Under the pieces are notes generated by a model, which searched no databases, had not been told where the DNA came from, and was given only the letters and a program-made list of their open reading frames with translations. The position numbers were made by a program, and so were the translations under genes. From NCBI GenBank assembly GCA_945872335.1, contig CAMBZS010000009.1:1-35434 (forward strand): a stretch of DNA of 35,434 nucleotides, in the 5' to 3' direction. Below, in pieces: positions 2 to 9,410 of this stretch. Within the stretch, counting starts at the first letter, position 1. Every line of letters starts with the position of its first letter. This stretch comes from Bordetella parapertussis. GTDB lineage: Bacteria; Pseudomonadota; Gammaproteobacteria; Burkholderiales; Burkholderiaceae_E.

Positions 2-124
2 CCAATCGCCGACATGTTCAACCGCCAGCAGACCATTACTGGGCAACTGCTCGGTTCCGAGGACGCCCGCGAGGGCGCGACGGCATTTACCGAAAAACGC
101 CCCCCCGTCTGGAAAGGCCGCTGA
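2..124 (+). CDS. Enoyl-CoA hydratase/isomerase (crotonase family), 3' end only
   Basis: Only the last 40 codons are inside the window; the gene begins upstream. The visible tail contains SEDAREG followed by AFTEKRPPVWKGR and a stop. This is the typical C-terminus of crotonase-superfamily enoyl-CoA hydratases, where the SxDxxEGxxAFxEKRxPxW segment forms the last helix. The family hydrates trans-2-enoyl-CoA to 3-hydroxyacyl-CoA or carries out related isomerase reactions in the cytoplasm. The cupin gene begins 3 bp after the stop, so it almost certainly belongs to the operon that follows. There it would supply the hydration step after the acyl-CoA dehydrogenase. The active-site glutamates lie outside the window, so the exact reaction cannot be read. 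Confidence 0.85.
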   Translation, partial: PIADMFNRQQTITGQLLGSEDAREGATAFTEKRPPVWKGR

Positions 125-127
125 GCC

Positions 128-877
128 ATGATCCGCGCCGCCACGCTCGACCAGGTTCGCTCCTCGCGCGTCACCCGCCGGATCGACACCTTCGAAGGCC
201 ACATCACCGATTTCATCGCCACCTTCGAAAAGCGCGCGCCCGGGCCGCAGGCCTTTCTGGTGGAGCAGAACCCAAACTGGGTCACGCCAACCCATTTTCA
301 TCTGGAGCATCAGTTCCAGGTGATTGTCGGAGGCTCCGGGTCGCTGGGACGCACGCCCGCGGCGCCGTTCGCGGTTCACTATGCGGCCCCCGAAACCGGC
401 TACGGGCCCATCACCGCCGGCCCCCAGGGCATCGCTTATCTGACGCTGCGTGCAGAAGGCGATACTGGCGCCTGGTACCTGCACAAACCAGGTGTGCGCG
501 AACAGATGCGTCCGGGCCTCAGGCGTGAGCAGCAGCACGGCATGCCGTCGGACGCGGTCCGCACGCCCAGCCTTCTGTCACTCGGAGCGCCCGTCACCGA
601 GGCGCTGATCACCCCGCGCGCCGACGGATTGGGCGCCTGGCTCATGCGCCTGCCGCCGAACCAGTCGGCCCAGGTTGAACCCAATGCGCCACATGGCGGC
701 CGCCACTATGTCGTCACCGCAGGGCTTGCGCAATTCCACGACCTGCGGCTTGAAGCGCTGTCGGTCGCGTTTGCCGACCCGAACGAGACTTCCGAGGTCA
801 CGGCAGGCCCAAGCGGCGCCGACGTCCTTGTTCTGCAGTTCCCATTACAAGCTCGACAACAGGAGACCCGCCCATGA
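128..877 (+). CDS. Cupin-fold protein of unknown function
   Basis: A 249-residue protein with a cupin-like motif near residues 54-71 (THFHLEHQFQVIVGG), where His56, His58 and perhaps Glu60 or Gln62 could bind a metal. The PHGGRHYVV stretch near residues 185-195 hints at a second degenerate cupin half. There is no signal peptide, so it is probably cytoplasmic. It starts 3 bp after the enoyl-CoA hydratase stop, with AAAGG about 10 bp before the ATG, and its end overlaps the next start by 4 bp (ATGA), so it is translationally coupled. I cannot name its reaction. Cupins in such operons may be dioxygenases, isomerases or small-molecule sensors. It is not related to the second cupin of the window (27662-28258) beyond the fold. 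Confidence 0.75.
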   Translation: MIRAATLDQVRSSRVTRRIDTFEGHITDFIATFEKRAPGPQAFLVEQNPNWVTPTHFHLEHQFQVIVGGSGSLGRTPAAPFAVHYAAPETGYGPITAGPQGIAYLTLRAEGDTGAWYLHKPGVREQMRPGLRREQQHGMPSDAVRTPSLLSLGAPVTEALITPRADGLGAWLMRLPPNQSAQVEPNAPHGGRHYVVTAGLAQFHDLRLEALSVAFADPNETSEVTAGPSGADVLVLQFPLQARQQETRP

Positions 878-1860
878 AGACGCGTACCCATGCGCTCACC
901 GCCACGCTGGCGCTTGCCCTCGCCAGCGCCGCGCCAGCCGCCTTGGCCCAGGCCACCAACTGGCCGGAAAAGCCGGTGAGGATCGTGATGCCTTTCCCAA
1001 CGGGCGGGGCATCCGACGTGCTCACCAGAATCCTCGCTGATCAGTTGCGCTTAAAACTCGGCCAGACCTTCGTGGTGGAGAACCGAACCGGCGCGGGTGG
1101 CAATATCGGCATGGAGGCCGGCGCCAAGGCAGCGCCCGATGGTTACACACTCACCAGCGCCACCATCGGAACGCTCTCGATCAACCAGTATCTGTTCAAG
1201 AGCCTGCCCTACGATCCCGAGGGCAGCTTCTCCTACATCTCAACGTTCTGGGCCAACTGCAATGTGGTGCTGGTTTCGCCCCAGCACAACCAGGCGCGCA
1301 CGCTCAATGACTTCATCACCTGGGCCAAGGCGCAACCAAAGGGCATCAACTTCGGCTCCTCGGGCGTGGGCACCACACCGCACCTCGCGGGCGAACTGTT
1401 CCGGGTCCGCGCCGGCATCTCGGCCACCCACGTACCGGCGCGCGGGGCGCCCCAGACCATCTCGATGCTGCTCTCAGGCGCACTCGACACATCGATCGAC
1501 AACATCGCAAGCTACGCAGGGCTTCTCGCCGGCGGTCAGGTGCGCGGCCTCGCGGTGACCTGCCCGGAGCGCTGGCCCACGCTGCCCGATCTGCCCACCA
1601 TGGCCGAGGCCGGCATCCCCGATTTCGTGATCACTTCATGGGGTGCGCTGGTTGCGCCTGCCGGAACACCGGCGGCAATCGTCGAGAAGCTCTCGCGCAC
1701 CGTGGCCGAGATCGCCGCCGACAAATCCGTGCAGGAGCGCTTCCTGACAGCGGGCGCGCGTCTCACCTCATCCACCCCCCAGGAGACCGTTGCCTTCGCC
1801 GCGCGCGAACGCATCAAGTTCCAGGAACTGATACGCCTTTCGGGCGCCAAGGCAGACTGA
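874..1860 (+). CDS. Bug-family (TctC-like) periplasmic solute-binding protein
   Basis: A 328-residue extracytoplasmic receptor of the tripartite tricarboxylate transporter type. Residues 1-25 form a Sec signal peptide (MKTRTHALTA, alanine-rich core, cleavage near ALAQ-A). The mature start, NWPEKPVRIVMPFPTGGASD, is the family hallmark of the first ligand-binding loop. Further typical segments are QTFVVENRTGAGGNIG (about residues 69-84), the GSSGVGTTPHLAGELF stretch and VAPAGTPAAIVEKL near the C-terminus. No TctA/TctB genes adjoin it, which is usual for the expanded orphan Bug families of Bordetella-like bacteria. It probably captures a carboxylate that feeds the surrounding operon, either for a distant TctAB pair or for sensing. 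Overlaps of 4 bp upstream and a 1-bp gap downstream place it firmly in the operon. Confidence 0.93.
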   Translation: MKTRTHALTATLALALASAAPAALAQATNWPEKPVRIVMPFPTGGASDVLTRILADQLRLKLGQTFVVENRTGAGGNIGMEAGAKAAPDGYTLTSATIGTLSINQYLFKSLPYDPEGSFSYISTFWANCNVVLVSPQHNQARTLNDFITWAKAQPKGINFGSSGVGTTPHLAGELFRVRAGISATHVPARGAPQTISMLLSGALDTSIDNIASYAGLLAGGQVRGLAVTCPERWPTLPDLPTMAEAGIPDFVITSWGALVAPAGTPAAIVEKLSRTVAEIAADKSVQERFLTAGARLTSSTPQETVAFAARERIKFQELIRLSGAKAD

Positions 1861-1861
1861 C

Positions 1862-2761
1862 ATGCCGGAAGTGAAGGATGCGCTCGCCACGGGCAGCGCC
1901 TGGCAACGCTGGGGTCCGGATGACGAGCGTGGTGCACTGAACACCATCACACCGGCGCAGGTGCGTCGCGCCACCGCGCTGGTGCGAACCGGCACGGTAC
2001 TCAGGCTCGCGCAGCTCCTGTCGCCAAAAACACCGGTGCCCGCGCATCGCTGCGGGCTGCAGCACTTCATGGGCCGTGATGGGGGCGACTACGCTGCCGG
2101 GGCAAGGCGTCCTGGCGGCTTTCAGTTTGCCGAGGACACGGTGGTGATGCCCCTTCACATCGGCACCCACGTCGATGCACTCTGCCATGCCTGGTACGAC
2201 GACCGCCTCTATAACGGCTACCTGGGCAGCACCCTTCGCAGCACCACGGGTGCGGCAAGACTGGGCGTGGACAAGATGCCACCCGTGGTCACCCGCGGCG
2301 TTCTGCTCGATCTGGTGCGCCTGCGGGGGCGTTTGCTGCACGATGGCGAGGTGATCACGCGCGCCGACCTGGAAGACGCCGCAAGCGCAATCGGCGTTCA
2401 TCTCGAGCCGGGCGATGCGGTGCTGCTTCGCACCGGCTGGCTCGAGGCACAGAAAACGGTTTCGCATCCCTCGTTCAACACTGAACCCGGCATCGACCTC
2501 GACGCAGCACAGTGGCTTGCCAATCAGGACATTGCCCTGGTGGGCGCCGACAACTTTGCGGTTGAAGTGCTGCCCTTTGCCGACGGCACCGTGTTCCCGG
2601 TGCACCAGTGCCTGATTCGTGACTACGGCATTCCCCTTCTGGAAGGACTGATGCTCGACCCACTCGTGGAAAGCGGTCGTCATACCTTCATGTTCGTGGC
2701 GAGCGCGCTGCCCATCGTGGGGGCGACAGGCTCGCCCTTGTCGCCCGTCGCGATTCTCTGA
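1862..2761 (+). CDS. Cyclase family protein (kynurenine formamidase-like metal hydrolase)
   Basis: A 299-residue cytoplasmic protein carrying the signature of the cyclase/kynurenine formamidase family (PF04199). The motif HIGTHVDALCH spans residues 99-109, with His99, His103 and Asp105 as the expected metal ligands. Members hydrolyse cyclic or acyl amides and lactones, for example N-formylkynurenine or isatin. The LRTGWLE segment and the ALVGADNFAVEVLP stretch are also typical of this family's long bacterial members, which often sit in aromatic or terpenoid catabolic operons. The ATG lies 2 bp after the receptor stop. Its place next to a CoA-transferase suggests that it opens a ring or cleaves an amide to give a free acid that is then activated. 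The substrate is unknown; it need not be kynurenine, since no other tryptophan-pathway gene is near. Confidence 0.88.
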   Translation: MPEVKDALATGSAWQRWGPDDERGALNTITPAQVRRATALVRTGTVLRLAQLLSPKTPVPAHRCGLQHFMGRDGGDYAAGARRPGGFQFAEDTVVMPLHIGTHVDALCHAWYDDRLYNGYLGSTLRSTTGAARLGVDKMPPVVTRGVLLDLVRLRGRLLHDGEVITRADLEDAASAIGVHLEPGDAVLLRTGWLEAQKTVSHPSFNTEPGIDLDAAQWLANQDIALVGADNFAVEVLPFADGTVFPVHQCLIRDYGIPLLEGLMLDPLVESGRHTFMFVASALPIVGATGSPLSPVAIL

Positions 2762-2769
2762 GACCCGTC

Positions 2770-3990
2770 ATGGCCACCGCCAAACGTCCGCTCGATGGCA
2801 TTCGGGTGCTGGAAATCGCCTCGATGATCTTTGGCCCGCTGGCAGGGCAATACCTGGGCGACATGGGCGCCGAGGTGATCAAACTGGAGCCGCCCGAGGG
2901 CGACCTCACGCGTGCGATCGGACCGCGCCGGTCAGCCAGGATGGGCTCGTTTTTCCTGACCTCGAACCGCAACAAGCGCAGCATTGTGGTCGATCTCAAG
3001 CGCCCGGAAGGCCAGCAGATTCTCGACCGACTGGTTGCGCAGAGCGATGTGCTGCTGCACTCGATGCGTACACCCGCAGCCAGGCGCCTGGGGCTCGATT
3101 ACGCTGTGCTTGGGCGGGTCCACCCCGCCCTGGTTTACTGCCATGTCACGGGCTACGCCGATCATGGCCCCTACGGCGGACGCCCGGCCTACGACGATAT
3201 CATCCAGGCGGCCTCGGGGCTTGCCCGTCTGCAAAGCGTCGTGGCGGGTGAACCCCGCTTCATTCCCACCATCGTGGCCGACAAAATCAGTGGCGTGCAT
3301 GCCGCCTATGCAATCGTGCTTGCGCTCATGCACCGGCTGCGCACCGGCGAGGGCCAGCAGGTCGATGTGTCCATGTTCGAGACGCTTGCCGCCTTCAACA
3401 TGATGGAACATCAATGGGGCCATGCATTCGAGCCACCGATTGCGCCAATGGGCTATGAACCGGTCGCAAAGGCGGTTCGAAGACCTTATCGAACCCGGGA
3501 CGGACATCTGGCCTTGCTTCCCTATACCGATGCGCATTGGCGGCGGTTCTTCGAGCTTGCAGGCGCCTCCGGGGTGATGGCCGACCCGCGCTTTGCGACC
3601 TTTGCCGCACGTCAGCGGCATTTCCGCGAGGTGTGGGACGAGGTCGAGCAACAGGTCGCCAGGAAAACCAATGCCGAATGGCTGCAACTGCTCACCCCCG
3701 AAGACATTCCATTCTCGGTTGTGAACAGCCTGGAGGACCTGGTGGCCGACCCCCATCTGCACGCCATCGGCTTCTGGAGCATCGAAGAGCATCCCACAGA
3801 GGGGTTGCTGCGCGTGCCGATGAATCCGCTGCGGCTGAGCGCCTCCCCGCCCGCGGTGCGCCGCCTGCCGCCAGGGCTGGGCGAACACAGCACCGATATC
3901 CTGCGCGAGTGCGGCTTTGATGCCGCCACCGTCGCGCGTTTCACCGAGCCGGGCGGCGTCTGTGCCGCCGAACCACTCAGCCCACCATGA
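2770..3990 (+). CDS. CaiB/BaiF family (class III) CoA-transferase
   Basis: A 406-residue class III CoA-transferase, which moves CoA between carboxylates through an aspartyl thioester. The N-terminus (LDGIRVLEIASMIFGPLAGQ, then LGDMGAEVIKLEPPEGD) is the family signature. The catalytic aspartate is probably Asp142 in RPAYDDIIQAASG (residues 138-148). KTNAEWLQLL near residue 298 is also characteristic, as is the length. In this operon it most likely activates the acid produced by the upstream cyclase-family hydrolase, using a CoA donor such as succinyl-CoA; this role is inferred. The ATG comes 8 bp after the previous stop, and the end overlaps the acyl-CoA dehydrogenase start by 4 bp. Confidence 0.93.
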   Translation: MATAKRPLDGIRVLEIASMIFGPLAGQYLGDMGAEVIKLEPPEGDLTRAIGPRRSARMGSFFLTSNRNKRSIVVDLKRPEGQQILDRLVAQSDVLLHSMRTPAARRLGLDYAVLGRVHPALVYCHVTGYADHGPYGGRPAYDDIIQAASGLARLQSVVAGEPRFIPTIVADKISGVHAAYAIVLALMHRLRTGEGQQVDVSMFETLAAFNMMEHQWGHAFEPPIAPMGYEPVAKAVRRPYRTRDGHLALLPYTDAHWRRFFELAGASGVMADPRFATFAARQRHFREVWDEVEQQVARKTNAEWLQLLTPEDIPFSVVNSLEDLVADPHLHAIGFWSIEEHPTEGLLRVPMNPLRLSASPPAVRRLPPGLGEHSTDILRECGFDAATVARFTEPGGVCAAEPLSPP

Positions 3991-5147
3991 TTCCACGCAC
4001 ACTCTTTGATGCCGATCACGAGGTCTTCCGGACCACCGTCCAGCGCTTTATCGCGGAGCGCGTCACGCCCCACCACGCCCAGTGGGAAAAAGACGGCGAG
4101 GTCCCGCGCACGCTCTGGCGCGAAGCCGCTCAGGCAGGGCTTCTGTGCTGCAACGTCTCCACCGACTACGGCGGCATGGGTGGCGATTTCCTGCACAGCA
4201 CGATCCTGATCGAGGAATTCGCACGCGCAGGCGCGACCGGCCCCACCTTCTACCTGCACTCCGATATTGTCGCGCCCTACCTGGTCGACTTTGGCACCGA
4301 GGAGCAGAAGCGCACCTGGCTGCCGCGGATGGCCTCGGGTGAAGTGGTGTGCGCACTCGGCATGAGCGAACCCTCGGGTGGCAGCGATGTGCAGGCCATG
4401 CGCACTCAGGCGATCCGCGATGGCGATCACTACGTGATCAATGGTCAGAAGGTATTCATCACCAACGGCCACAGCGCCGATCTGCTCCTTCTCGCCTGCA
4501 AGACCGATCCCAAGGCTCGGGCCAAGGGGGTGAGCCTCATCCTGGTGGAAACCGATCGACCCGGCTTCACGCGCGGCAGAAGGCTGGAAAAAATCGGCTG
4601 CAAGGCGCAGGACACGGCAGAGCTGTTTTTTTCCGACCTGCGCGTGCCGGTCGGCAACCGCCTGGGCGGCGAGGGCGAAGGCTTTGCCATGCTGATGACG
4701 CAGCTTGCGCAGGAGCGGCTGATCCAGGCCATCCGCGCAGTCGCCAGCAGCGAGGCGGCCATTGTCTGGACCCGCGACTACGCGGTAGGCCGCGAGATGT
4801 TCGGTCAAACACTGGCCGACTTTCAGAACACCCGCTTTCAGCTTGCCGAGCTTCATGCCGAGGTACTCGCGCAGCGCGTCTTCGTGGACCGCGCGATCGA
4901 GCTTCACCTGCGGGGCGAGCTCGATGCCACCGATGCGGCTGCAGCCAAGCTCACCACCACCGAGCTGCAGGGACGGGTGATGGACCGCTGCCTGCAGCTT
5001 TTCGGCGGATGGGGCTACATGTGGGAGTACCCGATCGCGCGCGCCTATGCCGACGCGCGGATGTGCAGGATCGGTGGCGGCAGCGCCGAGGTGATGAAGC
5101 AGATCATCGGGAACGCGCTCCTGCCGCGAGTCAAAAAGCCATCCTGA
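3987..5147 (+). CDS. Acyl-CoA dehydrogenase (LCAD/isovaleryl type)
   Basis: A 386-residue flavoprotein of the acyl-CoA dehydrogenase family, which makes trans-2-enoyl-CoA with FAD and passes electrons to ETF. The FAD and substrate loop CALGMSEPSGGSDVQAMRT (from about residue 116) and the C-terminal LFGGWGYMWEYPIARAYADAR are diagnostic. The place occupied by the catalytic glutamate in MCAD-type enzymes reads IGGGSAEVMKQII, with glycine instead. A glutamate is present on helix G in QLAQERL (Glu243), the position used by LCAD and isovaleryl-CoA dehydrogenase. The enzyme is therefore expected to be active. It is coupled by 4 bp to the CoA-transferase and followed by a phosphotransferase gene, a pairing also seen in ACAD10/ACAD11 and LvaA/LvaC systems. 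Confidence 0.94.
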   Translation: MIPRTLFDADHEVFRTTVQRFIAERVTPHHAQWEKDGEVPRTLWREAAQAGLLCCNVSTDYGGMGGDFLHSTILIEEFARAGATGPTFYLHSDIVAPYLVDFGTEEQKRTWLPRMASGEVVCALGMSEPSGGSDVQAMRTQAIRDGDHYVINGQKVFITNGHSADLLLLACKTDPKARAKGVSLILVETDRPGFTRGRRLEKIGCKAQDTAELFFSDLRVPVGNRLGGEGEGFAMLMTQLAQERLIQAIRAVASSEAAIVWTRDYAVGREMFGQTLADFQNTRFQLAELHAEVLAQRVFVDRAIELHLRGELDATDAAAAKLTTTELQGRVMDRCLQLFGGWGYMWEYPIARAYADARMCRIGGGSAEVMKQIIGNALLPRVKKPS

Positions 5148-5157
5148 CGGGTAAGCC

Positions 5158-6207
5158 ATGAACGCGCCCACCGATCGTGCAGTCACGCTTGACCAGACAG
5201 GCGCCGATCAACTTTCCGACGCGGTCATCAGCGGGCTCACTGCCCTGATCCGCGCCCAGACCCCACGGGCACGCGATATCCGTCTTGAGCGTCTCGTCCG
5301 CTCGGCCGGGGGTCTATCGCGCGAGAACTGGCGTCTCGATGCTTCATGGACCGACGCACGCGGCACGCACTCGCATGAGCTGATGCTGATGCGGGACGCC
5401 TCGGGCACCTTGCTCGAGACGGAACGCGACCGGGAATTCGCAGTGCTGTCGGCGCTCGCGCACAGCGATGTGCCCACGCCCCGTGCGCACTGGGCTGATC
5501 CCGATGGCCGCTATCTGGGCGCCCCCTCGATCGTGATGGATCGTATGCCCGGACAGTGCGACTACCTGGTCCTGAACGGCTCGGCGCCCATCGAGGCGCG
5601 ACTCGCACTCGCCCAGCGGTTTCTGGATGTACTCGCCAGGATTCACGCATTCGACTGGCGCGCGGCGGGCCTGGGAGCAAGTCTGGGCGAGCCGCAAGGC
5701 AAGCCCTCATCGGTTGAACTGGCGCACTGGACCAGGGTCTATCAGCGGGTGAGACTCGAGCCTCACCCGGAGCTCGACTACATCCATGCCTGGCTGTCGG
5801 CGCGCGAGCCCGAGGCCGAGGCGGTTGTGCTGGTACACGGCGACTTCAAGCCAGGCAACGCTCTGGTGGAGAACGGCCGCATCACAGCCAAGCTTGACTG
5901 GGAAACCGCGCACCTTGGTGATCCGCTGGAAGATCTGGGCTGGATCACCAATCCGGTGCGGCGCCGCGAGCATCAGATCGCCGATCATTGGGAACGCGAA
6001 CAGATCGTTGCTGGCTACCGGACCCTCACCGGCCGGATGGTCAATGAGCATCACCTTACCTGGTGGAACGTGTTTTCAAACTGGAAGCTCGCGGTGATTC
6101 AGCTCACCGCCATCGCTGAATTCGTGGCGGGTCGCTACGACCGCGTTTTCCAGACACCCTCCTGGCTCTACCGCCCCATGTTCCAGATGATGGAGCGCGC
6201 GTCATGA
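5158..6207 (+). CDS. APH-fold phosphotransferase (LvaA/ACAD10-like kinase)
   Basis: A 349-residue aminoglycoside-phosphotransferase-fold kinase. The catalytic loop VLVHGDFKPGNALV covers residues 225-238, with His227, Asp229 and Asn234. The metal-binding aspartate is Asp247 in AKLDWETAHLGDP. IVMDRMPG is the hinge region. Relatives next to acyl-CoA dehydrogenases, or fused to them (ACAD10, ACAD11, bacterial LvaA), phosphorylate the hydroxyl of 4-hydroxyacyl-CoAs. The phosphate can then be eliminated and the chain sent to beta-oxidation. Gene order here (dehydrogenase, kinase, small protein) suggests the same chemistry rather than antibiotic resistance; this is inference. The ATG lies 10 bp after the dehydrogenase stop and its stop overlaps the next ATG (ATGA). 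Confidence 0.9.
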   Translation: MNAPTDRAVTLDQTGADQLSDAVISGLTALIRAQTPRARDIRLERLVRSAGGLSRENWRLDASWTDARGTHSHELMLMRDASGTLLETERDREFAVLSALAHSDVPTPRAHWADPDGRYLGAPSIVMDRMPGQCDYLVLNGSAPIEARLALAQRFLDVLARIHAFDWRAAGLGASLGEPQGKPSSVELAHWTRVYQRVRLEPHPELDYIHAWLSAREPEAEAVVLVHGDFKPGNALVENGRITAKLDWETAHLGDPLEDLGWITNPVRRREHQIADHWEREQIVAGYRTLTGRMVNEHHLTWWNVFSNWKLAVIQLTAIAEFVAGRYDRVFQTPSWLYRPMFQMMERAS

Positions 6208-6698
6208 GACCCGATATGGGCGAGCAGATGGAGGGCACCTGCCGGATCCTCGAGCAGGTGGTGGCGCCCTGTGTGAACGATCCGTTCGCGCGCACGATTC
6301 TCGACAATCTCGTCGCCAATCTCAGAATGCTTGCTGGCGCCATGCCGGGGGTGGCGGCCTTTCTGCGCGATGACAATCAGGCAAGCGCGGCGCTGCTCGC
6401 CACGCTGCAGGCAACGCTCTCGCCCGAGCTCGCGCAGCGCGTCGCGGATACGCTCGCGAAACCCGCGCCTGATGCCGCTGACAGCAAGGCGCTCGATGTC
6501 CGGAACACCGCGCTTCGCACCCTGCTTTCCGAGGCGATCTGCTCACCCGGTCTTACTCCCGCGCACCACCAGGCGATTCGCAGTCACCTGAGCGAACGCG
6601 CCGCCAGGGTGCCCATGCGCTATGTCCCCACGGTTGCCGCAAAGCCTGCTGGCAACGCCCCCAACGTCACCTCACCGCACAATGCTCACGCCACTTGA
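6204..6698 (+). CDS. Small alpha-helical protein, possible kinase partner (LvaB/DUF6285-like)
   Basis: A 164-residue protein with no signal peptide or membrane segment. It appears largely helical over residues 1-105, with long alanine- and leucine-rich stretches such as LATLQATLSPELAQRVADTLA, and a disordered tail after residue 140. It starts inside the stop of the kinase gene (ATGA overlap) and ends 17 bp inside the next gene. In levulinate operons a small protein, LvaB, is encoded directly after the kinase LvaA and is needed for its activity. Many other ACAD-linked kinases have a small DUF6285 neighbour. By position and size this protein is a candidate member of that group. I cannot confirm the family by eye, so the function is a proposal. 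Confidence 0.7.
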   Translation: MRPDMGEQMEGTCRILEQVVAPCVNDPFARTILDNLVANLRMLAGAMPGVAAFLRDDNQASAALLATLQATLSPELAQRVADTLAKPAPDAADSKALDVRNTALRTLLSEAICSPGLTPAHHQAIRSHLSERAARVPMRYVPTVAAKPAGNAPNVTSPHNAHAT

Positions 6699-7830
6699 CG
6701 ACACGCTCTGGCATCAGTTGCCCACCACTTTCGACCATGTCTGGACCAGCGATCCACGTTTCTTCGACCGCTACTGGTTTGCAATGTATTCGGGCGACGG
6801 CCGCGTTGCCATCCAGGTCACCATGGGCGCATATCGCAACATGAATGTGCTCGACGGCGGCGTGGTCGCTGTGGTGGGCGGCAGGCAGACCAACTTGCGG
6901 GTCTCCCGGTCACTCGACGGCAGCGTTGACACCGTCTGCGGCCCGCTTCGAATTCGCCCGATCGAACCACTGAAATCGTTCGAGATCGAGATCGCGCCGG
7001 GCGATCACTCGCCCCACGGACGGATTGTCTGGGAGTGCGTGGAACCCGCCCGCGAGGAGCACCCGCACTACGAGCGTCTCCACGGGCGGACGGTGGAAGA
7101 CTATCGTCGCTTTGATCAGATCGGTGTGGCGAGCGGCGAACTGGTGGTGGGCGGTGAACGTATCGGCTTTGATCGCTGGTGGTCCTGCCGCGACCATTCC
7201 TGGGGCGTGCGCCGGGGCATGGGCGTTCCCGAGCCGGTGACGGGTCCGCGAACGCCGCTGAGCGAGAAGGGCCATGTGATGTCGTTTCTGTTTTTCTCCA
7301 CGGACACCATGAGCGGGCATCTGCTTTTTTCAGGGCGGGGCGATGATCCCCCCTACACGACCGGCACGGTCACCATGCGCCACACCGAGACGGTTCATCA
7401 TGCACAGTCGATCATCCTCGCTGTGGACCTGCATGAAGGGACCCGGCGCTTTCGTTCAGCCACCGTGACTGCAGTGTTTTCCGAGGGGCGTGTACTCAAG
7501 CTCGCGCTCGATGCGCAAGGCGCCGCCATCGCCATGCAGGGGCTGGGCTATAGCGGCGGCTGGCAGGATGGCAAGGGCCTGGGCGCCTGGCGCGGCGAAC
7601 ACGTCATCGAAACCGATGTCTGGGATGTTTCGCATCCTTCGCGCATCGTCTACCCGGACGGCACGCAGAAGGAACACTGGCACCGTATCCAGCCGGTCAG
7701 CGTGCGCGCCGACTTTTCCGGTGTGGTCAGCCACGGCACCGGCAGCATGACGCTAACCATTGCCGGGAGACTGCCCGGGCATCTGCAACTCACCGCGGCC
7801 GGAGCGATCCAGGCCGGTTCCGGTTCCTGA
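6682..7830 (+). CDS. CrtC/AttH-like beta-sandwich protein (DUF7064-type)
   Basis: A 382-residue protein starting at the ATG at 6682 (MLTPLDDTLWHQLPTTFDH). An upstream in-frame start at 6622 would overlap the previous gene by 77 bp and adds a poorly structured extension, so I prefer 6682, which still overlaps by 17 bp. The segment FDRWWSCRDHSWGVRRGMGVPE is the GxxRDHSWGxR motif of the lipocalin-like double-domain proteins related to hydroxyneurosporene synthase (CrtC) and AttH. The HWHRIQPVS stretch near the C-terminus belongs to the second domain. Members accompany steroid and terpenoid-like catabolic genes and acyl-CoA kinases, but most have no proven reaction. A role in handling a hydrophobic, perhaps polycyclic or isoprenoid, intermediate is possible. 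Confidence 0.75.
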   Translation: MLTPLDDTLWHQLPTTFDHVWTSDPRFFDRYWFAMYSGDGRVAIQVTMGAYRNMNVLDGGVVAVVGGRQTNLRVSRSLDGSVDTVCGPLRIRPIEPLKSFEIEIAPGDHSPHGRIVWECVEPAREEHPHYERLHGRTVEDYRRFDQIGVASGELVVGGERIGFDRWWSCRDHSWGVRRGMGVPEPVTGPRTPLSEKGHVMSFLFFSTDTMSGHLLFSGRGDDPPYTTGTVTMRHTETVHHAQSIILAVDLHEGTRRFRSATVTAVFSEGRVLKLALDAQGAAIAMQGLGYSGGWQDGKGLGAWRGEHVIETDVWDVSHPSRIVYPDGTQKEHWHRIQPVSVRADFSGVVSHGTGSMTLTIAGRLPGHLQLTAAGAIQAGSGS

Positions 7831-7845
7831 CCAGAGAGCCCCCGC

Positions 7846-9006
7846 ATGAGCCTGTCCGATCGCAGCTGCATCACCGGAATCGGTGAAACCGCCTACACCA
7901 GAAACTCCACGCGCAGCGCCTTTCAACTTCAGATCGAGGCCTCGCTCAAGGCCATCGCCGACGCAGGCCTCAATCCCAGGGCGATCGACGGCGTGATTCC
8001 AATCGGCATCGTGAGCGGCACCGCCGATGACTTCATCGAGAATTTTGGCATTCCGGACCTGCGCTTTTCCGCTGTCATTCCGCATGGTGGCGCGAGCCCG
8101 GTGATGGCGCTGCAGGCTGCCGCGGCGGCAATTGCCGCAGGCATCTGCCACCACGTACTGATCACCTTCGGGCGCAACATCAGCGCCATGGCCGGCAACA
8201 ACAAGGCCGGGGCGCGGATTCACAACATGCCCCAGTTCCACTATGTAACCGAGTTCGAGCATCCGATGGGGGCGAGCGCGCCCGCGCAGCTTTATGCGCC
8301 GATGGCCCGCCGGCATATGGCGCTCTACGGCACCACGGTCGAGCACTTCGGCGAAGTGGCCGTGGCTTGCCGTGCGCACGCCATCCTGAACGGCAATGCC
8401 CTGATGACCAAGCCGATCACGCTTGAAGACCACCGCGCCTCGCGCATGATCGCCGATCCTTTTCGGCTCCTAGACTGCAGTCTGGAAAGCGATGGCGGCG
8501 CCGCTGTGGTGGTCAGCAGCGCGCAAGCCGCGCTCGATGCCAGGCACCGGCGCGTGTTCATATCGGGCGTGGCCGCCGGGCATCCTGATTCACCAGGGTC
8601 CATCACCCAACGCCCCGACATCACCAGTCTGGGTATCGCCAAGGCCGCACCGCGGGCGTTTGCCATGGCCGGTGTCACGCACGACGACATTGATGTCGCC
8701 GAAATCTACGACTGCTTTACCTACGCGGTCATTCGGCAGATCGAGGACATGGGCTTTTGCAAGCGCGGCGAGGGTGGCCCGTTTGTGTCCGGTGGCCGAC
8801 TGAGGCTGGGCGGCGCCCTGCCCACCAACACCCACGGCGGACTCCTCTCGCAGGCGCATGTCTGGGGCCTCAACCATGTGGTGGAGCTCACGCGTCAGTT
8901 GCGCGGCGACGGTGGTGCCGCACAGGTCGCCGATGCGGAAGTGGGGCTGGTCACCGGCTATGGCGATCTGGGCGATGGCGCGCTCGCCATTTTGCGCAGG
9001 GAGTGA
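7846..9006 (+). CDS. Thiolase-fold protein lacking nucleophilic Cys (Ltp2/SCPx-like, probable C-C lyase)
   Basis: A 386-residue thiolase-superfamily protein of the lipid-transfer/SCPx branch. Where biosynthetic and degradative thiolases have the CASG nucleophile, it has HGGASPVMALQAAAAAI (from residue 80), so there is no catalytic cysteine at that site. It retains AEIYDCFTYAVIRQIEDMGF (Tyr288) and the C-terminal loop NTHGGLLSQAHVWG (residues 328-341). Steroid-degrading Ltp2 has the same arrangement and acts as a retro-aldolase, with tyrosines rather than cysteine, together with a DUF35 partner. A DUF35 gene follows here after 5 bp. I infer that this protein cleaves a beta-hydroxyacyl-CoA with a tertiary or hindered carbon. 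A plain ketothiolase is unlikely. It starts 15 bp after the previous gene, with a GAGAG-type ribosome site. Confidence 0.88.
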   Translation: MSLSDRSCITGIGETAYTRNSTRSAFQLQIEASLKAIADAGLNPRAIDGVIPIGIVSGTADDFIENFGIPDLRFSAVIPHGGASPVMALQAAAAAIAAGICHHVLITFGRNISAMAGNNKAGARIHNMPQFHYVTEFEHPMGASAPAQLYAPMARRHMALYGTTVEHFGEVAVACRAHAILNGNALMTKPITLEDHRASRMIADPFRLLDCSLESDGGAAVVVSSAQAALDARHRRVFISGVAAGHPDSPGSITQRPDITSLGIAKAAPRAFAMAGVTHDDIDVAEIYDCFTYAVIRQIEDMGFCKRGEGGPFVSGGRLRLGGALPTNTHGGLLSQAHVWGLNHVVELTRQLRGDGGAAQVADAEVGLVTGYGDLGDGALAILRRE

Positions 9007-9011
9007 AATTC

Positions 9012-9410
9012 ATGAATGACATTGCAGCCCGTCCGCCGCAACTGCCCACCGATCTGTCGCGCCCATTCTGGGAAGCCGCACTTGAGGGCAGGCTCGTGCT
9101 TCAGCAGTGTGCAAACTGCGGCGTGCTCAGACACTATCCCCGCCTGCTCTGCAGCCACTGCCATTCAGAGGCCGTTTCGTGGCACGAGGCAAGCCGCCGA
9201 GGCCGGATCCATAGCTGGACGGTGGCCCATCATCCGTTTCATCCCTCGTTCCGCGCCGAGGTGCCCTACACGCTGGTCACCATCGATCTGGAAGAAGGGC
9301 CGCGCACGCTGGGCCGGTGGGTGGGTGACACCCCCGTGCTGGGCGAGCCCGTGCTGGGCCGGTTCGAGCGCCGCGACGACGGCGTCGATCTGGTGTTTGA
9401 AAGGGCCTGA
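9012..9410 (+). CDS. Zn-ribbon OB-fold (DUF35/ChsH2-like) protein
   Basis: A 132-residue protein. An N-terminal helix (residues 16-30, SRPFWEAALEGRLVLQ) leads into a rubredoxin-like zinc ribbon with Cys33-x2-Cys36 and Cys47-x2-Cys50. An OB-fold follows, with the typical VPYTLVTIDLEEGPRTLGR strand pair. The ATG at 9012 is chosen because it follows the thiolase stop by 5 bp and gives the usual family length; longer versions would run back into the thiolase gene. DUF35 proteins bind thiolase-fold partners and form the acyl-CoA channel, as ChsH2 does with Ltp2. Direct adjacency to a cysteine-less thiolase indicates a heteromeric complex. It is the last gene of the first operon. Confidence 0.9.
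   Translation: MNDIAARPPQLPTDLSRPFWEAALEGRLVLQQCANCGVLRHYPRLLCSHCHSEAVSWHEASRRGRIHSWTVAHHPFHPSFRAEVPYTLVTIDLEEGPRTLGRWVGDTPVLGEPVLGRFERRDDGVDLVFERA

What the first reader, a model, noticed from the sequence alone, without database searches (positions are those of the whole stretch)
2..9410. Eleven-gene operon that matches no pathway I know
A hydrolase that may open a ring, a CoA-transferase, dehydrogenase, kinase, hydratase, C-C lyase with DUF35, and a CrtC/AttH-like protein are packed with gaps of 15 bp or less, along with their own periplasmic receptor and a cupin. A plausible scheme is: receptor-captured carboxylate or lactam/lactone, ring opening by the cyclase-family enzyme, CoA activation, dehydrogenation and hydration, optional phosphorylation-elimination to move a hydroxyl, then retro-aldol cleavage. 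Presence of CrtC/AttH-like and Ltp2-like proteins leans towards an isoprenoid or alicyclic substrate. The whole route is inference.
Basis: inference. Interest (0 to 1): 0.65.

Follow-up and report, generated by a model that had tools for sequence, protein, structure and literature searches.

The report
Kinase and phospholyase terpenoid-type catabolic operon
This bacterial operon pairs an enzyme that probably puts phosphate on an alcohol with a relative of a lyase that removes such a phosphate as a leaving group, so it probably strips a stubborn hydroxyl group from a ring-shaped, terpenoid-like compound; the substrate is unknown.

Summary
Ten complete genes and the tail of an eleventh lie on one strand of 2-9410, 15 bp apart or less. 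The operon is cut by the contig end: in a same-genus genome it has 17 genes beside a divergent LysR gene, and the missing genes sit on another contig of the source genome that ends in the same hydratase gene.

The key is the "CrtC/AttH-like" protein (6682-7830). It is homologous to the solved 25-phosphosteroid lyase (profile E 1.2e-78). With the kinase (5158-6207) and an unnamed helical protein (6204-6698, remotely DUF6285-like) it forms a kinase-helper-lyase triad, complete in 23 of the 27 closest relatives found. I conclude that this is an ATP-dependent dehydration module: an alcohol, probably tertiary, is phosphorylated and phosphate is eliminated.

An upstream monooxygenase, a cyclase-family hydrolase, CoA-activating enzymes and an Ltp2/DUF35-like pair suggest an alicyclic or terpenoid substrate. 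That is inference; 15 of 25 triad loci show no such monooxygenase nearby.

Verdict: new variant of a known kind; substrate unknown.

The parts
2..124 (+). C-terminal 40 codons of a crotonase-family enoyl-CoA hydratase; the rest lies on contig C3 of the same genome
   Evidence: PF00378 E 0.0028 over the profile's end, below cut-off; 5' part of the gene ends at C3:1; full-length orthologue in G004
128..877 (+). cupin-like protein, role unknown
   Evidence: H-x-H cupin-like motif read by eye; no Pfam/NCBIfam model passes; orthologues 86% in L027, 60% in L028
874..1860 (+). periplasmic TctC/Bug-type receptor (third of three in the full operon)
   Evidence: PF03401 E 2.7e-56
1862..2761 (+). cyclase-family hydrolase, proposed lactone/ester opener
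   Evidence: PF04199 E 9.3e-28; HIGTHVDALCH motif at residue 99; solved relative 5ibz E 3.7e-52, uncharacterised
2770..3990 (+). CoA-transferase family III (CaiB/Frc-like)
   Evidence: PF02515 E 3e-111
3987..5147 (+). acyl-CoA dehydrogenase of LCAD/IVD type (Glu next to Arg244; Gly in the C-terminal IGGGS)
   Evidence: best solved relatives 2pg0 E 3.9e-114 and LCAD 8w0t E 3.8e-110; residues
5158..6207 (+). APH-fold kinase, proposed alcohol or hydroxyacyl-CoA kinase
   Evidence: PF01636 E 1.1e-28; HGDFKPGN and LDWE motifs intact; solved relatives 3dxp, 9o56, ACAD11 kinase, 3ats, 9fsg
6204..6698 (+). unnamed helical protein ('H'), proposed kinase partner, remotely DUF6285-like
   Evidence: no Pfam/NCBIfam hit; between kinase and lyase in 23 of 27 best relatives; hhalign to DUF6285 prob 88.6, score 41.7; helical model pLDDT 87.5
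6682..7830 (+). Rv3169-family protein, proposed phosphate-eliminating lyase
   Evidence: NF053593 244.5 bits against cut-off 150; 25-phosphosteroid lyase 9fzn/9g2i/9g4c, phmmer E 1.2e-29, profile E 1.2e-78
7846..9006 (+). SCP-x/Ltp2-type thiolase-like protein, proposed retro-aldolase; no Cys seen at the place of the thiolase nucleophile
   Evidence: PF22691 E 4.4e-47; solved relatives 4u4e and lipid-transfer protein 6ok1; Cys positions
9012..9410 (+). ChsH2-type DUF35 protein, probable partner of the preceding gene
   Evidence: PF01796 E 4.1e-15 and PF12172 E 8.1e-15

Best explanation
The segment is the 3' part (11 of 17 genes) of a catabolic operon. Its distinctive core is a three-gene ATP-dependent dehydration module: an APH-fold kinase (5158-6207) phosphorylates a hydroxyl, probably tertiary and perhaps on a CoA-bound acid; a small LvaB/DUF6285-like helical protein (6204-6698) assists the kinase; and a 25-phosphosteroid-lyase homologue (6682-7830) eliminates phosphate to leave an alkene. 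Around it I propose this order, all inferred: receptor capture; CoA activation; oxygen insertion by the luciferase-like monooxygenase (a cyclohexanone-monooxygenase-like enzyme in some other lineages); opening of the lactone by the cyclase-family hydrolase; CoA activation of the hydroxy acid; kinase/lyase dehydration; dehydrogenation and hydration; and retro-aldol cleavage by the Ltp2/DUF35-like pair, which suits a branched carbon that cannot be oxidised to a ketone. An alicyclic, isoprenoid-derived substrate is the best guess.
For: Lyase homology: profile of Rv3169-like proteins against 25-PSL E 1.2e-78; the window protein alone E 1.2e-29 over residues 2-186; 29 of 35 strongly conserved model positions identical in 25-PSL. 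Kinase motifs HGD/N and DWE intact. The order kinase-H-lyase is complete in 23 of the 27 best relatives (L027-L053); L034 starts inside H at a contig end; L050-L052 lack it. An acyl-CoA dehydrogenase gene lies directly before the kinase only in window, L027 and L028, so the module seems not to need it. H resembles DUF6285 (prob 88.6, score 41.7; best of 60 column shuffles 16.3; reversed 22.5), and LvaB, a 12-kDa protein, was pulled down with the kinase LvaA (PMC6692424). 25-hydroxysteroid kinase acts on a tertiary alcohol and phosphate is then eliminated (PMC8449060, PMC7411048). LLM protein: best solved relative 3,6-diketocamphane 1,6-monooxygenase E 5.4e-28. Flavin-binding monooxygenase genes (Pfam-tested in L030 and L034; CHMO-like by my reading) lie about 5.5 kb before the lyase, with ligase, cyclase and kinase between, in L030, L032, L033 and L035, and 6.7 kb after it in L034.
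Against: Nothing was assayed. The lyase is a distant relative of 25-PSL (the single-sequence match covers the N-terminal half). The kinase profile ranks 3dxp, 9o56 and ACAD11 above 3ats and 9fsg, the last of which I only suppose to be 25-HSK, so a CoA ester is as likely a substrate as a free alcohol. Recombinant 25-HSK is highly active from one gene (PMC8449060, heading), and Pseudomonas citronellolis has no lvaB next to its lvaA, so a helper is not always needed. No flavin reductase gene was recognised in the operon. Of 81 Rv3169-family loci, 45 show no kinase by my profile within 4 kb (some are cut by contig ends). Of 25 triad loci (window, L027-L049, L053), 15 show no LLM- or CHMO-type gene in the stretch held: L028, L029, L031, L037, L040-L049, L053, so the Baeyer-Villiger link is not general. 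Eight loci (L041-L048), mostly Acidimicrobiia by title, have a dehydrogenase-profile gene 5-7.5 kb away. H is not recognised by the Pfam DUF6285 model, and with N-terminally cut DUF6285 rows hhalign gave only prob 32.1.
Confidence: 0.65

Rival explanations
1. LvaABC/ACAD11-type route: kinase plus H phosphorylate a 4-hydroxyacyl-CoA and the acyl-CoA dehydrogenase eliminates phosphate; the Rv3169-like protein has another role.
For: The kinase profile matches 3dxp best and the ACAD11 kinase domain third; H is DUF6285-like; kinase and dehydrogenase genes are adjacent in window, L027 and L028.
Against: Counting from Arg244, taken as the conserved R631 of ACAD11, the window has Q, Q and R where R626, H634 and R637 stand (PMC12440821); no HCMR anywhere and no Asp in the C-terminal IGGGS stretch; best solved relatives are 2pg0 and LCAD. 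The dehydrogenase is not next to the triad in the other loci. No LvaD-type reductase gene was seen in the operon.
Confidence: 0.13
2. Steroid or bile-acid side-chain degradation: the operon handles a steroid side chain with 25-HSK/25-PSL chemistry and Ltp2/ChsH2-type side-chain release.
For: 25-PSL homology; Ltp2-like thiolase with DUF35.
Against: No steroid-ring gene is among the window products that I named, but neither the rest of the window nor the genome was searched for such genes. Three Bug receptors and an LLM monooxygenase suit a smaller substrate (inference).
Confidence: 0.13
3. The kinase-H-lyase triad is a detoxification or salvage unit that acts on alcohols independently of the flanking beta-oxidation genes.
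For: The triad occurs with different neighbours in Proteobacteria, Nocardioides and Acidimicrobiia; Rv3168-Rv3169 form an operon under a TetR repressor in M. tuberculosis (PMC5340868).
Against: In the window it is embedded with overlapping or near ends in a longer operon whose order is kept in L027 and, with an inserted CoA-transferase and a changed CoA-transferase III place, largely in L028.
Confidence: 0.09

Closest known systems
25-hydroxysteroid kinase / 25-phosphosteroid lyase (Sterolibacterium denitrificans; PMC8449060, PMC7411048; 25-PSL in PDB 9fzn, 9g2i, 9g4c)
   Same: kinase plus a homologous lyase; ATP-dependent dehydration through a phosphoester (proposed here)
   Different: Here kinase and lyase genes are neighbours with a third gene between them, whereas PMC8449060 saw no lyase candidate near the kinase gene; the operon has monooxygenase and CoA-activation genes; substrate unknown; the kinase looks closer to LvaA/ACAD11 types
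LvaAB(C) of Pseudomonas putida and ACAD10/ACAD11 (PMC6692424, PMC11342911, PMC12440821)
   Same: APH-type kinase; small partner gene beside it; acyl-CoA context
   Different: No LvaC/ACAD11-type dehydrogenase residues; elimination is assigned to a separate lyase; H is only remotely DUF6285-like
Rv3168-Rv3169 of Mycobacterium tuberculosis (PMC5340868; 3ats is taken as Rv3168 from recall)
   Same: Rv3169-family gene in one operon with an APH-type gene
   Different: operon of Rv3168-Rv3169 beside a TetR regulator; no H gene mentioned; function not tested in the passages I read
Ltp2/ChsH2 and other thiolase-DUF35 pairs (6ok1)
   Same: thiolase-like protein followed by a DUF35 gene
   Different: No MaoC hydratase partner recognised; a crotonase gene is upstream instead
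Diketocamphane monooxygenases (type II Baeyer-Villiger enzymes; 4uwm)
   Same: best solved relative of the upstream LLM protein, E 5.4e-28
   Different: distant; no flavin reductase gene recognised; ketone oxidation not tested

Membership tests
25-phosphosteroid lyase family (Rv3169 family) | sequence homology over the full length | tested here: met
   NF053593 above its cut-off; 25-PSL match to positions 2-364 of the 379-position profile, E 1.2e-78
25-phosphosteroid lyase family (Rv3169 family) | family-conserved residues kept | tested here: met
   29 of 35 strongly conserved profile positions identical in 25-PSL; which of them are catalytic is not known to me
25-hydroxysteroid kinase/25-PSL system | steroid C25 tertiary alcohol as substrate | not testable with these tools
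   needs assay
25-hydroxysteroid kinase/25-PSL system | molybdenum steroid C25 dehydrogenase in the genome | not tested
   not searched
LvaABC / ACAD11 4-hydroxyacyl-CoA pathway | APH-type kinase with intact catalytic motifs | tested here: met
LvaABC / ACAD11 4-hydroxyacyl-CoA pathway | LvaB-type (DUF6285) partner | tested here: inconclusive
   Pfam model silent; hhalign prob 32.1 with cut rows, 88.6 with longer rows, above shuffled and reversed controls; that LvaB itself is DUF6285 is recalled
LvaABC / ACAD11 4-hydroxyacyl-CoA pathway | dehydrogenase with catalytic Asp and R/HCMR-type residues | tested here: not met
   Q, Q, R at the three offsets from Arg244, Gly in IGGGS, no HCMR in the protein; residue list from PMC12440821; the offsets are ungapped and assume Arg244 = R631
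Ltp2/ChsH2 retro-aldolase | Ltp2-type thiolase homologue with adjacent DUF35 gene | tested here: met
Ltp2/ChsH2 retro-aldolase | thiolase nucleophile Cys absent | tested here: inconclusive
   no Cys between residues 8 and 101; the CASG stretch of 6esq has no counterpart in the alignment of the G004 orthologue; no structure-based check
Type II Baeyer-Villiger monooxygenase | homology to diketocamphane monooxygenase | tested here: met
   E 5.4e-28 over residues 2-357 of the G004 orthologue, which is 95% identical to the gene on C3
Type II Baeyer-Villiger monooxygenase | flavin reductase partner and ketone substrate | tested here: inconclusive
   no reductase gene recognised in the operon; substrate untested

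The most novel reading that the evidence does not exclude
The operon encodes an undescribed aerobic route in which Baeyer-Villiger oxidation and lactone opening leave a tertiary-hydroxy acid that is dehydrated by a three-part kinase-helper-phospholyase shared by Alpha- and Betaproteobacteria, some of them from lakes and ponds. Its natural substrates could include tertiary-alcohol terpenoids of lakes such as 2-methylisoborneol or geosmin; my two searches on these (listings only) showed no paper naming such genes. By extension the Rv3168-Rv3169 and DUF7065 modules would be alcohol-dehydrating kinase-lyase pairs too.
Probability: 0.18. Interest if true: 0.82.

Novelty: new variant of a known kind. 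Interest (0 to 1): 0.6.

Why it matters
It gives a testable function (phosphate elimination from phosphorylated alcohols) to Rv3169-family proteins, for which I saw only family names, and shows kinase and lyase genes in one operon with a third, unnamed protein. If true, ATP-dependent dehydration of hard-to-remove hydroxyls, which the papers I read describe from anaerobic sterol degradation, is also used beside oxygen-dependent enzymes. Use in the degradation of terpenoid odour compounds or other tertiary alcohols is speculation.

Tried and rejected
H fold: AlphaFold2 gives a confident helical model, but Foldseek's best PDB match has E 1.4 and VIA-align gives only generic helical matches, best Z 7.4. 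H in relatives: 4 of 150 genomes match, the own one included; of the other three only G004 has the operon; G066 and G136 are weak (2e-4, 5e-4), the G136 match has stops inside, and no operon gene was found in the stretches read, 3956 and 18001 bases. The H profile in 369 class genomes: own and one weak match, 7.8e-5. The lyase: 6 of 150 relatives, own included, the other matches outside G004 at 29-35% identity; 1 of 4 same-genus genomes carries it, one of the four being only 78% complete. Plasmids: 22 records with distant lyase relatives, 24-37% identity. Promoter/terminator scan uninformative. Papers: none for DUF6285 or Hopanoidivorans; in the listings (5 of 5; 15 of 146; 12 of 20) I saw titles and abstract starts only, and none named a cluster of this kind. 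Of 20 papers naming Rv3168 or Rv3169 I read passages of one. Considered and set aside: the ACAD as phosphate-eliminating enzyme; a carotenoid-hydratase-like reading of the 6682 protein (25-PSL homology found instead); geosmin/2-MIB as a stated substrate (no direct evidence).

Selections: A2 holds 20 H sequences; L034 (truncated), L035, L045, L049, L053 (shortened), L064 and L089 were left out. A3 holds 8 kinases. The DUF6285 alignment first held rows cut at the Pfam match (prob 32.1), then longer rows (88.6); both held two rows (L036, L038), of which the L036 one was tested and not recognised by Pfam. Without the two, prob 87.5 and score 41.0, reversed 24.2. With the first 11 H rows alone, all proteobacterial, prob 64.9 over 47 columns. 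Gene calls in the related loci are a rough script's, some in wrong frames. Recheck: my draft had left L028 and the L040-L049 loci out of the count of triad loci without a monooxygenase gene and had called L038 empty; the mended count (15 of 25) made me lower the main confidence from 0.68 to 0.65 and the novel case from 0.20 to 0.18.
Full report
What is there. The window is the whole of contig C9 of a 3.88-Mb, 323-contig genome assembly. From 2 to 9410 it carries, all on the + strand, the end of a crotonase gene and ten complete genes spaced -4 to +15 bp, with one longer overlap of 17 bp before the Rv3169-family gene if it starts at 6682. Family scans name the receptor, cyclase-family hydrolase, CoA-transferase III, acyl-CoA dehydrogenase, APH kinase, Rv3169-family protein, SCP-x-type thiolase and ChsH2/DUF35 protein. 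Two products, a cupin-like one and the 164-residue protein here called H, match no Pfam or NCBIfam model above cut-off.

The operon is longer than the window. In the same-genus genome G004 (contig 44 = CAIPNM010000044, ErkenSummer_bin-5116) the same genes stand in the same order with 76-97% protein identity. Upstream come Bug1, an AMP-forming ligase, a luciferase-like (LLM) monooxygenase, Bug2, an ADP-forming CoA ligase, an NMO-like flavoprotein and the complete crotonase, next to a divergent LysR gene (the Bug1, Bug2 and LysR names are by reading and by similarity to the window's receptor). In the source genome the matching genes (82-97% identity) lie on contig C3, reading towards its first base and ending inside the crotonase gene that the window continues. 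That the two contigs abut is inferred from this and a 7-base overlap seen by eye.

The lyase. A profile of six Rv3169-like proteins (A1) matches, up to E 1, only two distinct chain sequences in the PDB, both 25-phosphosteroid lyase, best E 1.2e-78 (alignment). The window protein alone matches with E 1.2e-29 over residues 2-186. Of 35 strongly conserved profile positions, 29 are identical in 25-PSL. In anaerobic sterol degradation the tertiary C25 alcohol is phosphorylated by 25-hydroxysteroid kinase and phosphate is then eliminated to an alkene (PMC8449060: abstract, outline and passages; PMC7411048: passages; PMC11061730: passages). PMC8449060 states that no lyase candidate lay near the kinase gene. 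Here kinase and lyase genes are neighbours.

The triad. L053, counted among the 23, carries a shortened H. By record title these loci include sphingomonads, Comamonadaceae, Rhodoferax, Gammaproteobacteria, Nocardioides jensenii and Acidimicrobiia. Across all 81 loci looked at, 36 have a kinase-profile gene within 4 kb and 26 an H match within 3 kb, so the wider lyase family is not tied to this module. Lyase identities of 72-74% between the window and sphingomonad loci, beside 1 carrier among 4 same-genus genomes, suggest horizontal spread. L027, L030 and L035 bear Lake Erken or pond names in their titles; whether the other close carriers are from fresh water I did not check, and MAG sampling may explain it.

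H. Twenty H proteins align over their length, and the model is a confident helical one (pLDDT 87.5) without a clear solved relative. Against DUF6285 proteins cut at the Pfam match hhalign gave probability 32.1; with longer rows 88.6, score 41.7 over 110 columns. The best of 60 column-shuffled controls scores 16.3 and the reversed alignment 22.5; with the nine Pfam-found rows only, probability 87.5 and score 41.0 against 24.2 reversed. LvaB is a 12-kDa protein pulled down with the kinase LvaA, and both genes are needed for growth on levulinate in P. putida, but P. citronellolis has no lvaB there (PMC6692424, passages). That LvaB belongs to DUF6285 is recalled, not tested. I therefore propose H as a kinase partner.

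The kinase. HGD-K-N and DWE motifs are intact in the window and in the relatives printed (in L042 the second pattern first matched elsewhere, but LDWE follows HGD there too). The profile of eight triad kinases ranks 3dxp, 9o56 and the ACAD11 kinase domain above 3ats (Rv3168, by recall) and 9fsg. I suppose, without a source, that 9fsg is 25-hydroxysteroid kinase. So the kinase side looks LvaA/ACAD11-like and the lyase side 25-PSL-like.

The dehydrogenase. ACAD11 uses an Asp and an Arg/HCMR set that is shared with LvaC (PMC12440821, passages; PMC11342911, passages). Counting from Arg244, which I take for the conserved R631, the window enzyme has Gln, Gln and Arg at the places of R626, H634 and R637; HCMR occurs nowhere in it, and its C-terminal IGGGS has no Asp. 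Its best solved relatives are 2pg0 and long-chain acyl-CoA dehydrogenase. A dehydrogenase gene lies directly before the kinase only in the window, L027 and L028; L041-L048 have one 5-7.5 kb downstream of the lyase.

The substrate. The best solved relative of the LLM protein (G004 orthologue) is 3,6-diketocamphane 1,6-monooxygenase (E 5.4e-28). In four sphingomonad loci (L030, L032, L033, L035) a flavin-binding monooxygenase-profile gene (Pfam-tested in L030; CHMO-like by my reading) lies about 5.5 kb before the lyase, with ligase, cyclase-family hydrolase, kinase and H between, and an acetyl-CoA-hydrolase/transferase-type gene (Pfam-tested in L030) follows the lyase. L034 has NMO- and crotonase-like genes (74%, 80%) and such a monooxygenase downstream. 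L036 has an LLM-profile gene 8 kb, L038 and L039 flavin-monooxygenase-profile genes 8-10 kb away. With the window (through C3) and L027 (through G004) that is 10 of 25 triad loci; the other 15 (L028, L029, L031, L037, L040-L049, L053) show neither in the stretch held, some of which are short. The last pair of the window operon resembles Ltp2 with ChsH2 and shows no Cys at the place of the thiolase nucleophile. A route of oxygen insertion, lactone opening, CoA activation, kinase/lyase dehydration and retro-aldol cleavage fits these parts and would suit an alicyclic isoprenoid. Every step of it is inference.

What is known. Single parts are known; the combination was not seen in searches of an open-access library, which holds few subscription papers, and most of those hits I saw as listings only. 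The M. tuberculosis pair Rv3168-Rv3169 is an operon repressed by Rv3167c (PMC5340868, passages). I file the finding as a new variant of a known kind: LvaAB-like kinase parts with a 25-PSL-like lyase in an operon with oxygen-dependent enzymes.

Noticed in passing
L036:3228-8521 and L038:3737-8098, minus strand: Beside the triad lies a second, divergent kinase module: APH-type gene, small protein, AMP ligase and (L036) a DUF7065 protein that the Rv3169 profile also finds; DUF7065 may be of the same lyase superfamily.
   Followed up: partly
L094, L100, L106: In Actinomadura/Thermomonospora loci the Rv3169-family gene lies near kinase, LLM, DUF35 and thiolase profile matches, perhaps an independent recurrence of the association.
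   Followed up: no
window:23736-24818: One protein fuses a DCC1-like thiol-disulfide oxidoreductase domain to a COQ7 domain.
   Followed up: no
window:14705-22733: A second catabolic and transport set: AtuA-family protein, 2-hydroxyacid dehydrogenase, HpcH-type aldolase, SMP-30-like protein, TctC, TctA.
   Followed up: no
window:25677-27665: E1 alpha and beta parts of a thiamine-dependent dehydrogenase are fused in one 663-residue protein, near what read like branched-chain-type transporter genes (not scanned).
   Followed up: no
L037: The record is titled Klebsiella pneumoniae, but its genes resemble those of the gammaproteobacterial MAGs L036 and L038; possibly a mislabelled MAG.
   Followed up: no
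L053:4059-4418: The H gene of this locus lacks an internal stretch present in the other H proteins.
   Followed up: no
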